Below are positions 52,236 to 57,874 of a stretch of DNA of 64,000 nucleotides, one piece after another. The DNA comes from Capsaspora owczarzaki ATCC 30864. Its lineage: Eukaryota; Opisthokonta; Filasterea. Where the stretch lies: the NCBI RefSeq assembly GCF_000151315.2, contig NW_011887295.1:1350884-1414883 (forward strand). Reading direction: 5' to 3'. Positions within the stretch are counted from its first letter, which is position 1. Every line of letters begins with the position of its first letter. The notes below the pieces were generated by a model that worked only from the letters and a program-made list of their open reading frames with translations, was not told where the DNA came from and ran no database searches. The position numbers and the translations under genes were made by a program.

Positions 52236-52965
52236 TTCGTCGTTCTTGTTTGCTTGTTTGCTTGTTTGCTTGTTTGTGTTTGTTTGGTTTTTTTCTTTCA
52301 ATCTGTTGAAAACAGGAGTGATTTTGCAAAATCTGAACAAAACGCGCGAATTTGAAATCAGCTGCGGAACAATTGGAGCTTTTTTGATAGTTGATTTTGA
52401 GTGCGTAATTTTGGAAAAACCGCCAAGAAAATCAATTGCACGAGGGGTTTTGGTGCGGGAATTTCAGATTAGGGTTGATTTTTTGTTTAAATCTGCGCCG
52501 GATATATGAGCGGGATATTCGCACGAGGAGGAGGGGGAGGGGGAAAAGGTGGCAGATCTTTGTATTCGCACGAGGGGAGAGGGAGTGTCATCAATGCGAA
52601 AACACAGAAACCCCAAATGACCACGAGTAGATCTACGGCAGATGCTGTGACACCAGGACAATCAGGTGCTGACTCGTTTATTGGAGCTCGCATGGGGAGC
52701 TTGGGGGGAACAAAGAGATTTGACTGCGGACGATTTTTGGATTTGGTCGATCTTTTGCTGGATTCAGCTGGATTCAGCATGGCTGCAAAGTCTCTATCTC
52801 TCGATCTAGAACGACGTCAAAAAGAGAGCAACCACGAGACGTCAAAAAGAGAGCAACCACGAGACTTCAAGAACATGTACACTTTGTATTGTAACTAATG
52901 GGAGTTCGCTTCACATAAACACACTCACGCTCAGTGATTGGTCGCTTCAAACTGCACACTCACGC
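52236..52965. other. Intergenic region with short direct repeats
   Basis: No supported gene. It includes a CAAA/CAAG simple repeat next to the reductase ATG, purine-rich GGAGG runs (52525-52580), the 25-base tandem repeat listed separately, and an 18-of-19-base direct repeat at 52920-52938 and 52955-52973. The second copy of that direct repeat overlaps the stop codon of the next gene. Confidence 0.55.
52813..52862. repeat. 25-base tandem duplication
   Basis: Two exact, adjacent copies of a 25-base unit beginning GACGTCAAAAAGAGAG, at 52813-52837 and 52838-52862, in the intergenic space between the reductase and the VP39-like gene. Confidence 0.92.
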
Positions 52966-54459
52966 TCACTGATGCTCGTGGCTATTTTCGCTGCGACTGT
53001 GACTGGTATTGCGGTTGCTATCTTGGTTGTTGGAACGATTTCGAGACCGACCATTCTGAGTGGAACGGTGCTGATTGTCCCCTGGCAAAACCCTGCTTCG
53101 ATCGCGAGCCGAGTACTGCACAGGATTGGCAGCCTCGTAGGCAGGTCGGCCACCAATCCACTGACGGCTTTGTATTCCTCGCTTGCGCACGCCAGGATCA
53201 ATATTGTCGTCCAGTAAGGTTCGGCCGCCAGCAATCTTGCGAGAGATGCGGCGCGACATGTTTGCCACTTCTGTCGCGCAGTCGGCTTCCGACACTCGCT
53301 TGACCTTGAGGAGGTAGTCGGCGAGAATGAACACCTCGGCGCGACAGTCGTAACAGCAATCGAGGCCCTCGCCGCGCACGGGATGGTCGTAGAGCCAGAC
53401 GCGCTGCTCTGTGTTGAAAAAGAACATTTGTCGCTCGTACTTTGTGTGGTCGTAGTCGCGCTTGGCGTTCGGATCTTCTGCGGTAATCAACCGCGCCTCA
53501 GTGGTGGTGATTGGGCCCCAGACGGGCAGATAAAGGTCGCCGTCGAGGTACTCGGTGGTTCCGGGCGCCCACGGCAGACGGAACTTGAGCATACTGCGCA
53601 CTGGCTGCATGAGCAAGTGCCACCGCATTTGCGCGTCCATGTCCCACTTGACGCTCGCTTCGACTTCCTGGTCGGACTGGCGCTGCCAGTCGGCCGAACG
53701 GATGTCGCTGATAAAGAGCGCGCGCTGGCCGCAGTAGCTGCTCGCCATCTCGTCAGTAAAGAGCCCCTGGATGAGCTTGATGTGATCGGTCTCCTTGGCA
53801 GTAAATGGGGCTGGGTCGACGGCGTGAAAGTACAGCTCGGGAAACAGACTGCTCAGGTACTCGAGATGCGTGCCGGGCGCCGCACCCGCGTACACGACGA
53901 GCTGGCCGGGCACGCCGTGCAATGTGAGGAACTCAATCTCGCTCAGGAGCAGCTTGCGCTGACCCCAGTGAATCACGGTCTTGATCTCGTTGTTTCTGCG
54001 GCGGTACTCGAGCTCGAGCGCGTCACTGGTCAAGACCCGCGTAAACGCTGCGTCCGACCGCGTCGTGTACCCAGTCCCCTGGTTGAGCCAGCACTGTGCA
54101 ATGTGCCTGTTGTCCCTGGGTCGCAAGTGCAGGTTGTCCGACGACGAGTTGTCCGGGTTGTGCAGGTCGTTGTATTGGTTGCTGTCTGGTTGTTGGCTCA
54201 ATTCGTGCTCCTCCCGCTGCTCTGCTCCTGCTGCAGCGCTTGGTCGCAGCTGCTCTTGTGGGTCGCTCTGTATGTGTGTCGCCATGGCATCGGTCACCAC
54301 AGGCGCGGTTCCTGGGTCTTGGTCTTGGTCTTGGTCTTGGTCTTCGTCGGTTTCGACGCGCTCTCGCTTGCTAACTGGGTCCTGGTCGTTGTTGTCTTCT
54401 CCTTTGTCGCCGTGGCCTCGTTTGTATGTTTGAATCAGCTTGGATGAATCCGTTCTCAT
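52966..54459 (-). CDS. VP39-fold RNA cap 2'-O-methyltransferase-like protein
   Basis: Single exon, 497 residues. Residues about 155-400 match the fold family named after the poxvirus VP39 protein (poly(A) polymerase regulatory subunit/cap-1 methyltransferase), which also occurs in large DNA viruses and trypanosomatids. The S-adenosylmethionine loop reads VVYAGAAPGTHLEYL (residues 188-202), preceded by WGQRKLLLSEIEFL. The Lys-Asp-Lys-Glu tetrad typical of 2'-O-methyltransferases can be placed at Lys169, Asp252 (FISDIRS), Lys292 (MLKFRLPW) and Glu321 (TTTEARLI), so the enzyme looks active. The expected reaction is methylation of the first transcribed nucleotides next to the mRNA cap. The first 120 residues are disordered (DQ repeat, Q/S/N-rich) and the tail is Arg/Asn/Ser-rich. 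Origin, viral or ancient eukaryotic, is unresolved. Confidence 0.82.
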   Translation of the reverse strand: MRTDSSKLIQTYKRGHGDKGEDNNDQDPVSKRERVETDEDQDQDQDQDPGTAPVVTDAMATHIQSDPQEQLRPSAAAGAEQREEHELSQQPDSNQYNDLHNPDNSSSDNLHLRPRDNRHIAQCWLNQGTGYTTRSDAAFTRVLTSDALELEYRRRNNEIKTVIHWGQRKLLLSEIEFLTLHGVPGQLVVYAGAAPGTHLEYLSSLFPELYFHAVDPAPFTAKETDHIKLIQGLFTDEMASSYCGQRALFISDIRSADWQRQSDQEVEASVKWDMDAQMRWHLLMQPVRSMLKFRLPWAPGTTEYLDGDLYLPVWGPITTTEARLITAEDPNAKRDYDHTKYERQMFFFNTEQRVWLYDHPVRGEGLDCCYDCRAEVFILADYLLKVKRVSEADCATEVANMSRRISRKIAGGRTLLDDNIDPGVRKRGIQSRQWIGGRPAYEAANPVQYSARDRSRVLPGDNQHRSTQNGRSRNRSNNQDSNRNTSHSRSENSHEHQ

Positions 54460-55588: not shown

Positions 55589-56014
55589 AATCGCTGTTTG
55601 ATCCTTTTTTTTTCCACGCTGAACGCTCATCTCCGACCTGAGTGCTTTGACTCAAAGGCTACTCTGTGTGTTCTGCTAGCTCTGCGCATTCTATTCATTC
55701 TGTGCCTAGAAGCCATTCTGACGACGACGACTCGGACATCGACCATTCGACGTTGTTGTTTGACATTGGTTTTTGTTCCCGACACGCTCTCTTTGCATAG
55801 AGTTTGGATATTCGCTCCAAGCACACTGAATTTCAATGCTTTGTATCGAATCAAGCAGAAGCGAATTACAACTCAAATCCCAGTTCAAATTCAAACAACA
55901 CCCAAATTCGGATTCTTGGAAAATCAGTCATTTCAGTCTTCTTTTTTTGATTGTTCCAAGAACTTTTTTTCTTTTGGTCATTGTTTCATGCTCAACTTGA
56001 CTCGCACTTTAGCG
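55589..56014. other. Upstream region and possible leader of the HEXIM-like gene
   Basis: The reading frame of the HEXIM-like gene stays open back to about 55598, but the sequence is low-complexity, has no good start codon before 55988, and is better read as promoter and 5' untranslated leader. Confidence 0.5.
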
Positions 56015-57874
56015 ATGCAGGGAACGAGCTCAAGTAGTAACGCGTCAGGGTCGTCGTCGTCGTCGTCGTCGAGGCCAACCACTGTGGCCGTCGTCGTCGC
56101 ACCATCATCGTCGACGCACCCATCGGGCTTACTTCCGCCGCCATATACGAATGAGCAGTACGAGATGCAACAGGCGCGTCGTCGAGAGAGCGAAGGCGCA
56201 TTCGGCCCAACCGGCTCTCAAGCAGCAGGAGGAGGAGGAGGAGGACCAGTCACACCGGCCAAGTCCAGCCATCCGCCCATCATCATCACTCACTCGCCTC
56301 ACATGCCTCAGAGCGCATCATCGTCATCGACGTCATTATCATTACCAGGAAGCATCAACAGTAATAGTAATAGCATGAACAGTATTAGCAATGCTGCTGG
56401 TACTGCTGGGCGAAACTTCCAATCCGCTGCGAATAACAGCAACAACGCCAACCCGCCAACCCCTCAAAACAACCAACAGCAAAAGTCTCAGCAGCAACAG
56501 CAACAGCAACAGCAACAACAGCAGCAACAAGGAGGAGGATTGCAAAAGAAGCGATCGTGGAAGAATCGTCGGAGCTCCAAGGATTCAAGCTACTCGAGCA
56601 ACACAAACACGGCGGGTGCCCAAGCTGCCCCGACTCCAACCAGCAGCGGCGGCGGTGGAGGTGCCTCCATCATGGCTGATGGGCTTCATCGGGATCAACG
56701 GCACCGAGGCCGCCGTGCCAATTACTCATCCCAGGCCGATGGTGCAGATACTGCTGCTGCTGCGACGGATGCCGATTTCCACACAAACGTTGCCAGTTCG
56801 TCGCCCCCAATGCTGGATGCCATCTCGCCGCTAGCTACTCATCATTCAGCTCCTGCTGTTGCCGCTGATAGCCCTCAGTCGGCCAGTGGCGGAGGACGGA
56901 CGCAGTCCCGACGAGGCACCGCGTCAGGCCGGGCCACGCCTACAACCGAGCTGCACCAGCAGCAACTGCACTACGCGACTCGCCTTCGTGATGCAATGCT
57001 CAGTGCCCAGACGAGCCCCGTGGCTGCCGATGCGTTCCACCTGGCCGTCCCTGTCGAGGCGAGTCAGAATGGCAACTATGGCGGCCATTCTCTGCGCACT
57101 CGCCCGTCACGACCTGCCTCCACCGCGGTTTCGCCAGCATACGCCACTCGCTCGGCCTCACCAATGCCAGATAGCCACAGGGCCACAACCCCGGGCAGCA
57201 CTGTTCCCCTTGTGACGGACGCTTCCGTCGCCGGCGCCCGCGGAGGAGACCGAAAGAACCAGAAGCGGCAGGCAGTAAGTGCAAGCTCTTGGAACTCGAT
57301 CGCAGACGTGGCAACGTCCGGGCAATTCCTCGGACAAGTCTCGCCTTCGCTGGATCATAGCTTTACGGGTGACGAGTCAAACAACGCGCAATCGACTCCT
57401 CGCTCCAGACGGCGTGGGCGACGAGGCGGCCGTGATGAGGGGCAGCGGCATGCATCTGCCGATCCCTCTGTGATTGTCGAGAGGCGTTCGCGGCATGGAA
57501 ACCGCGTGGTCAAGCACTTACGTGCCGTTGCACCCAGGAATACAAGCCAGTTTCTGATCGGCGCGCACGAGGCCCAGCTCGGCGACGCAAAGTCACCGCT
57601 CCCTGAAATCATCACCATTCCGGCCGAAGAGCTGCAACATCCAGTTCCAACGGGAGACATTGGCAACAAGCTTCATCTCAACCAGAGCCAGGTGCCGTAC
57701 GGTTTCGCCGAGGACGAGTATGCTGAGGAGATGCAACGAGAGCTCCGCGCCATGACCAAGGCCCAGCTCATCGAACGAGTATTAGAGATGGACAACGAGC
57801 TCGAACAGCTTCAGGATGAAAATGAGGAGCTTCGGCGGCAACTGCGAGGGATTGATGAGATGACACGATATTGA
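56015..57874 (+). CDS. HEXIM-like P-TEFb inhibitor candidate
   Basis: Single exon, 619 residues from the ATG at 56015; an alternative in-frame ATG at 55988 has a poorer context. Residues 1-460 are low-complexity (Ser, poly-Gln, Gly). The last 160 residues resemble animal HEXIM in order: an Arg-rich segment (RSRRRGRRGG, then RRSRHGNRVVKH), then APRNTSQFLIG (from Ala506) in place of the PYNT motif region, an acidic linker, and a C-terminal coiled coil with EEMQRELRAMTKAQLIERVL followed by EMDNELEQLQDENEELRR. HEXIM binds 7SK RNA through its Arg-rich motif, inhibits CDK9-cyclin T through PYNT, and dimerises through the coiled coil. Here the motif's Tyr is Arg, so CDK9 inhibition may differ. The call rests on motif order and about 40 aligned residues. 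Confidence 0.62.
   Translation: MQGTSSSSNASGSSSSSSSRPTTVAVVVAPSSSTHPSGLLPPPYTNEQYEMQQARRRESEGAFGPTGSQAAGGGGGGPVTPAKSSHPPIIITHSPHMPQSASSSSTSLSLPGSINSNSNSMNSISNAAGTAGRNFQSAANNSNNANPPTPQNNQQQKSQQQQQQQQQQQQQQGGGLQKKRSWKNRRSSKDSSYSSNTNTAGAQAAPTPTSSGGGGGASIMADGLHRDQRHRGRRANYSSQADGADTAAAATDADFHTNVASSSPPMLDAISPLATHHSAPAVAADSPQSASGGGRTQSRRGTASGRATPTTELHQQQLHYATRLRDAMLSAQTSPVAADAFHLAVPVEASQNGNYGGHSLRTRPSRPASTAVSPAYATRSASPMPDSHRATTPGSTVPLVTDASVAGARGGDRKNQKRQAVSASSWNSIADVATSGQFLGQVSPSLDHSFTGDESNNAQSTPRSRRRGRRGGRDEGQRHASADPSVIVERRSRHGNRVVKHLRAVAPRNTSQFLIGAHEAQLGDAKSPLPEIITIPAEELQHPVPTGDIGNKLHLNQSQVPYGFAEDEYAEEMQRELRAMTKAQLIERVLEMDNELEQLQDENEELRRQLRGIDEMTRY

What the first reader, a model, noticed from the sequence alone, without database searches (positions are those of the whole stretch)
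52966..54459. Intronless VP39-fold cap methyltransferase gene in an intron-rich eukaryotic genome
The protein keeps the SAM loop (AGAAPGTHLEYL) and a plausible Lys169-Asp252-Lys292-Glu321 tetrad. The VP39 family is best known from poxviruses and other large DNA viruses, plus trypanosomatid cap methyltransferases; animals use the unrelated-length CMTR1/2 proteins for cap-1 and cap-2. Lack of introns suggests either capture from a large DNA virus or a retained ancient eukaryotic enzyme. The long disordered N- and C-termini look like host-style domestication.
Basis: partly seen in the sequence, partly recalled or inferred. Interest (0 to 1): 0.75.

Follow-up and report, generated by a model that had tools for sequence, protein, structure and literature searches.

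The report
Host VP39-type mRNA cap methyltransferase gene
A single-celled relative of animals carries a gene for an mRNA-cap methylating enzyme of the type best known from poxviruses; it appears to belong to an old family found in many microbial eukaryotes rather than to be a recent viral capture.

Summary

"Intronless" is unsafe: the public gene model has a 286-nt intron near the 3' end that removes the last 41 residues.

Recent viral capture is not supported, nor formally excluded. The genome has three such genes in two separate clades. The window gene and CAOG_01438 sit in a clade with Monosiga, Nuclearia and Calcidiscus, outside the labelled viruses. The AU test does not reject a Medusavirus link (p 0.08-0.10), and viral rows lie between the eukaryotic clades. 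Codon composition is host-like.

Capsaspora also has CMTR1, so the enzyme probably adds ribose methyls beyond CMTR1's; that step is inferred. New member of a known, little-studied family.

The parts
52966..54459 (-). ORF of 497 codons, VP39-type cap 2'-O-methyltransferase, CAOG_03223
   Evidence: public protein P0002 identical over residues 59-456
53095..54144 (-). ordered part of the AlphaFold2 model, residues 106-455
   Evidence: pLDDT under 50 only in 1-105 and 456-497 (stretches of 3 or more); 22 of 27 ten-residue blocks from 141 to 410 average over 90
53386..54015 (-). PF01358 match, residues 149-358
   Evidence: 61.9 bits, cut-off 25.4
53866..53889 (-). SAM-binding loop AGAAPGTH, residues 191-198
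   Evidence: aligned to VP39 GSAPGTH
53953..53955 (-). catalytic Lys169 (VP39 K41)
   Evidence: K in 119 of 120, 107 of 107, 113 of 114 relatives
53704..53706 (-). catalytic Asp252 (VP39 D138)
   Evidence: D in 341 of 341 counted
53584..53586 (-). catalytic Lys292 (VP39 K175)
   Evidence: K in 118 of 120, 107 of 107, 114 of 114
53497..53499 (-). catalytic Glu321 (VP39 E207)
   Evidence: E in 119 of 120, 107 of 107, 112 of 114
54004..54006 (-). Tyr152, possible equivalent of the cap-stacking VP39 Y22
   Evidence: Y in 118 of 120; the pairwise VP39 alignment is two residues off, so the match is unsure
53569..53571 (-). Trp297, equivalent of the cap-stacking VP39 F180
   Evidence: W or Y in 120 of 120
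53434..53436 (-). Glu342, equivalent of the cap-binding VP39 E233
   Evidence: E in 118 of 120
53344..53361 (-). DCCYDC motif, residues 367-372, near-invariant Cys pair among the nearer relatives
   Evidence: absent from the two IMG/VR virus proteins
53137..53223 (-). conserved C-terminal block RTLLDDNIDP..RQWIGGRPAY, residues 413-441, beyond the Pfam match
54145..54459 (-). disordered N-terminal extension, residues 1-105; the public model starts inside it, at M59 (54285)
52806..53091 (-). intron of the public gene model (GTTTTG..TTCTAG, 286 nt) covering ORF residues 457-497
52794..52805 (-). second exon of the public gene model (IER and stop)

Best explanation
CAOG_03223 is a Capsaspora nuclear gene for a SAM-dependent, m7G-cap-dependent mRNA ribose 2'-O-methyltransferase of the VP39 type. 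Shown by comparison: the fold, the SAM loop, the K-D-K-E tetrad, an aromatic residue at the F180 place and Glu342 at the E233 place. Inferred from VP39 biochemistry: the m7G cap is clamped, the nearby ribose is laid over the tetrad, Lys292 helps deprotonate the 2'-OH, and SAM gives the methyl. Inferred from gene content: Capsaspora's FtsJ-type CMTR1 makes cap 1, and the VP39-type enzymes methylate further cap-adjacent riboses (cap 2 and beyond), the division of labour reported for TbMTr1 against TbMTr2/TbMTr3. By origin it belongs to an old family shared by many microbial eukaryotes and giant viruses, not to a recent capture.
Against: No activity or cap structure for Capsaspora appears in anything I read. 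VP39 D182 has no clear counterpart. VP39 itself prefers the first nucleotide (PMC9479742, passages), so the division with CMTR1 is a guess. Mg18 also methylates poly(A), so the cap need not be the only substrate. The three Capsaspora proteins lack the G-patch of Monosiga and other relatives. 21 of the 38 rows of the clade are unlabelled environmental proteins, some of which may be viral. The labelled eukaryotes are not one clade: Palpitomonas and Polarella lie outside it, and the Medusavirus group lies between it and Palpitomonas, so old exchange with viruses, in either direction, is likely. The AU test does not reject the window pair grouping with the Medusavirus group (p 0.0986; 0.0825) or with the ankyrin-bearing group (p 0.244).
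Confidence: 0.72

Rival explanations
1. The gene was captured from a giant DNA virus by an ancestor of Capsaspora and kept.
For: Giant viruses carry the family: IMG/VR contigs L019 and L020, Medusavirus stheno (56% identity over 54% of the query), pithoviruses and mimiviruses by fold. Grouping with the Medusavirus group is not rejected. Viral rows lie between eukaryotic clades, and the row with the highest identity to the query in both trees is an unlabelled ankyrin-bearing protein that could be viral.
Against: The labelled viruses (three, one) fall outside the well-supported clade with Monosiga, Nuclearia, Calcidiscus and Tiarina. Three paralogues in two clades would need more than one capture (three together rejected, p 0.011; 0.033; groups were chosen after the tree was seen). 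GC3 0.767 lies in the 0.63-0.80 range of nine Pfam-supported segments of the window. Flanks are ordinary host genes.
Confidence: 0.12
2. An active VP39-type 2'-O-methyltransferase whose main target is not the mRNA cap but internal or poly(A) ribose, or a non-coding RNA cap.
For: Mg18 of Megavirus methylates poly(A) internally (PMC4402537, passages). VP39 D182 is not clearly conserved, and CAOG_02492 has Ser at the E233 place.
Against: In this protein the E233 place and an aromatic at the F180 place are kept and nearly invariant in relatives. G-patch and WW fusions in relatives suggest nascent transcripts.
Confidence: 0.12
3. A catalytically idle structural subunit, for example a poly(A) polymerase partner as VP39 is of VP55.
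For: The Pfam name, and VP39's second role (PMC7736282 and PMC4402537, passages).
Against: The full tetrad is kept in all three Capsaspora proteins and in nearly all relatives counted. Mg18 does not stimulate its polymerase (PMC4402537, passages).
Confidence: 0.04

Closest known systems
Poxvirus VP39 (J3), PF01358
   Same: Fold over residues 132-414, tetrad, aromatic at F180, Glu at E233
   Different: 23-24% identity; the profile match ends near residue 355, and the DxCxDC and C-terminal RTL..DP..PAY blocks conserved among the nearer relatives lie beyond it; long disordered ends; a VP55-type partner was not looked for
Trypanosome TbMTr2 / TbMTr3
   Same: Eukaryotic VP39-type enzymes that work beside a CMTR1-type TbMTr1 (PMC9479742, PMC3399392, passages)
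   Different: They act on a spliced-leader cap 4; their sequences could not be obtained here, so orthology is untested
Megavirus Mg18 and other giant-virus PF01358 proteins
   Same: Same family; Mg18 is an active 2'-O-methyltransferase (PMC4402537, passages)
   Different: The two IMG/VR relatives are 31-33% identical and lack the DxCxDC motif; Medusavirus stheno has it
CMTR1 / FtsJ-type cap methyltransferases
   Same: Reaction class and Rossmann-type fold; Monosiga and other VP39-type relatives share the G-patch found in CMTR1, and two rows of unlabelled species (P0064, P0066) have both G-patch and WW
Automatic UniRef/NCBI entries CAOG_03223, CAOG_01438, CAOG_02492 and Monosiga MONBRDRAFT_26377
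   Same: The same genes; the UniRef names of CAOG_01438, CAOG_02492 and Monosiga begin 'Cap-specific mRNA (n'
   Different: Automatic names only; the NCBI names are hypothetical or uncharacterized protein

Membership tests
VP39-type cap 2'-O-methyltransferases (PF01358) | profile match over the curated cut-off | tested here: met
   61.9 bits, cut-off 25.4
VP39-type cap 2'-O-methyltransferases (PF01358) | K-D-K-E tetrad | tested here: met
   K169, D252, K292, E321
VP39-type cap 2'-O-methyltransferases (PF01358) | VP39 fold | tested here: met
VP39-type cap 2'-O-methyltransferases (PF01358) | m7G clamp (Y22, F180, D182, E233) | tested here: inconclusive
   F180->W297 and E233->E342 aligned; Y22->Y152 likely but off by two; D182 not matched
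VP39-type cap 2'-O-methyltransferases (PF01358) | 2'-O-methyl transfer to capped RNA | not testable with these tools
   needs an assay
CMTR/FtsJ (PF01728) | profile match over the curated cut-off | tested here: not met
   no PF01728 hit for this protein at E<=1; the paralogue P0022 scores 20.6, under the 24.1 cut-off
CMTR1 | closest solved structure is CMTR1 | tested here: not met
gene captured from a giant virus | placed among labelled viral sequences | tested here: inconclusive
   best trees place it among labelled eukaryotes; AU does not reject grouping with the Medusavirus group
TbMTr2/TbMTr3 orthologue | same clade as the trypanosome proteins | not tested
   no trypanosome sequence was obtained

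The most novel reading that the evidence does not exclude
Early eukaryotes had a second, VP39-type cap-methylation system of at least two enzymes (clade A: CAOG_03223/CAOG_01438; clade B: CAOG_02492) beside CMTR1. It still hypermethylates cap-adjacent riboses in relatives of animals that are not known to use spliced leaders (recalled, not tested). Trypanosome cap 4 is then a surviving form of it rather than an oddity, animals lost it, and giant viruses and poxviruses took their enzyme from it.
Probability: 0.25. Interest if true: 0.68.

Novelty: new member of a known kind. Interest (0 to 1): 0.38.

Why it matters
Cap ribose methylation is mostly discussed for animals (CMTR1/2), trypanosomes and viruses. 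Three VP39-type genes beside CMTR1 in a close unicellular relative of animals, with relatives in several eukaryotic groups, make it directly testable whether caps beyond cap 1 are an old eukaryotic trait. They also bear on where the poxvirus and giant-virus enzyme came from. Capsaspora can be grown in the laboratory (recalled), so its cap structure can be measured.

Tried and rejected
Displacement of CMTR1: I first thought the VP39-type enzymes might replace CMTR1, since Monosiga and other relatives carry a G-patch and some a WW, domains of CMTR1. Rejected for Capsaspora: a CMTR1 is present. A second CMTR (CMTR2) was not seen with a CMTR1 query (next best hit E 0.001), which does not show absence. 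No G-patch lies at any of the three loci (0 of 7 genome matches).

Prokaryote source: no relative in genome contigs among 15 pattern matches, none in phage records.

More viral sequences: five IMG/VR scans gave only two distinct contigs. Structures not listed are not excluded.

Most EukProt rows bear no species name. A guess that GGOE01 is Euglena is recalled; a paper search did not confirm it.

Literature: no held paper contains both VP39 and Capsaspora (0 papers; open-licence PMC papers only). By titles and abstract starts, searches listed nothing on VP39-type enzymes of Capsaspora or choanoflagellates, but searches show only 15-20 of 81-1,068 papers. PMC7736282 already notes eukaryotic PF01358 members in a network of 106 sequences (passages).

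Full report
WHERE IT IS. The window lies at 1,350,884-1,414,883 of a 2.14-Mb contig in a 27.5-Mb genome. The closest protein is CAOG_03223 of Capsaspora owczarzaki ATCC 30864, 100% identical over 80% of the ORF. Neighbours are ordinary nuclear genes: a PI3-kinase, an ELYS-like protein (2359-codon ORF), an RRM protein, ABC-transporter and kinesin ORFs, a proteasomal ATPase and an NAD-dependent epimerase. Nothing around it suggests a viral insertion.

THE OBSERVATION. The ORF and the tetrad are as described. The ordered part of the model is residues 106-455. The public model starts at M59 and splices out residues 457-497 through a 286-nt GT..AG intron; joining the two exons reproduces the 401-residue protein exactly. 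The exon ends where predicted order ends (pLDDT under 50 from residue 456). I cannot tell whether the intron is supported by RNA; its donor GTTTTG looks weak. Other genes of the window also show long single ORFs, while the kinesin and ABC matches are split over two ORFs each, so the absence of introns in the domain says little about origin.

RELATIVES. One search found 1484 proteins at E<=0.001 among 7999 scored candidates and listed 120. Named eukaryotes in the listings are Capsaspora, Monosiga brevicollis, a Nuclearia, Calcidiscus leptoporus and Tiarina, and Polarella glacialis and Palpitomonas bilix. A 'm51a1' protein is probably Mastigamoeba (recalled). Named viruses are Medusavirus stheno and, by fold, pithoviruses, mimiviruses, Tupanvirus, Orpheovirus, cedratvirus and sheeppox virus among others. 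Of the 120 rows, 19 carry a G-patch, 3 a WW, 2 an RRM and 3 ankyrin repeats (counted by eye from the precomputed domains). A DxC[FYW]DC motif is found in 113 of 120, 88 of 107 and 19 of 115 of the three sets, and in 0 of 2 IMG/VR virus proteins; Medusavirus has it, Palpitomonas and Polarella do not.

ORIGIN. The genome has three PF01358 genes: C3 (CAOG_02492), C4 (this one) and C2 (CAOG_01438). In an 82-row tree and a 54-row tree without long branches, the window gene and CAOG_01438 are sisters (99/90; 100/90). In one search they lie in a clade of 38 rows (99/93): 2 Capsaspora, 5 named eukaryotes (the 'm51a1' protein counted), 10 other EukProt and 21 unlabelled environmental rows; Medusavirus sits outside. 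In one search the three labelled viruses are outside the corresponding 40-row clade (94/96). CAOG_02492 lies in another clade of seven rows (99/94), five of them EukProt proteins. Holding the three Capsaspora genes together is rejected (p 0.0333; 0.0108), so the family seems to have split before the Capsaspora lineage. Against this reading: the labelled eukaryotes are not one clade, because Palpitomonas and Polarella lie outside the 38-40-row clade and the Medusavirus group lies between; holding the window pair with the Medusavirus group is not rejected (p 0.0986 and 0.0825), nor with the ankyrin-bearing group (p 0.244). Bootstraps had not settled, and groups for the AU tests were chosen after seeing the tree. 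Codon third-position GC is 0.767, within 0.63-0.80 for nine Pfam-supported segments of the window. The simplest account is an old eukaryotic family, with exchange with giant viruses at unknown times and directions.

HOW IT PROBABLY WORKS. Capsaspora has one FtsJ-type CMTR1 (best PDB match human CMTR1, 2e-77) and a cap guanine-N7 methyltransferase. In trypanosomes the CMTR1-like TbMTr1 methylates position 1, and the VP39-like TbMTr2 and TbMTr3 positions 2 and 3-4 (PMC9479742 and PMC3399392, passages). By analogy the Capsaspora VP39-type enzymes would methylate riboses after the first. Shown: family, fold, active site, gene content. Inferred: cap dependence, position, nuclear co-transcriptional action. 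In relatives the G-patch and WW fusions hint at the last, since in human CMTR1 the G-patch binds DHX15 and the WW mediates binding to the phosphorylated RNA polymerase II tail (PMC6071836, passages). No G-patch or WW was found in the three Capsaspora proteins.

NOVELTY. The family is known, eukaryotic members have been noted (PMC7736282, passages), and these genes already bear automatic names. What seems not to be discussed, within the searches named under Tried and rejected (no held paper contains both VP39 and Capsaspora), is the co-occurrence of several VP39-type enzymes with CMTR1 in a holozoan and the two deep clades. That is a useful lead rather than a new kind of system.

Noticed in passing
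window 55598-57874 (+), residues 628-738: HEXIM-like protein (PF15313; 24.8 bits, 33.6 bits with its neighbours in the frame, cut-off 29) with an NTSQFLI stretch resembling the P-TEFb-binding motif (motif recalled) and a coiled coil weakly matching HEXIM1 (E 0.09). HEXIM is usually thought of as animal (recalled).
   Followed up: partly
L001 (CAOG_02492): Third paralogue keeps the tetrad but has Ser where VP39 has the cap-binding E233, so its substrate may differ.
   Followed up: partly
window 53344-53361 and relatives: Near-invariant DxCxDC motif with an upstream His (H359) in the nearer relatives (113 of 120's set), found in only 19 of 115 of the L019-query set; a possible metal site.
   Followed up: partly
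proteins P0299, P0305-P0307, P0313, P0317, P0319, P0321, P0322, P0324, P0327, P0334, P0337: 13 of 120 rows fuse another methyltransferase domain (PF13847/UbiE-like) to the VP39-type domain; possibly a two-step cap methylation enzyme of environmental, perhaps viral, origin.
   Followed up: no
protein P0032: A protein of an archaeal (Nitrososphaerota) metagenome bin is 54% identical to the window protein and groups with EukProt and unlabelled rows; probably a mis-binned contig.
   Followed up: no
L019: Giant-virus-like contig with photolyase-, TFIIB-, uracil-DNA-glycosylase- and Lon-like ORFs around its VP39-type gene (by eye).
   Followed up: no
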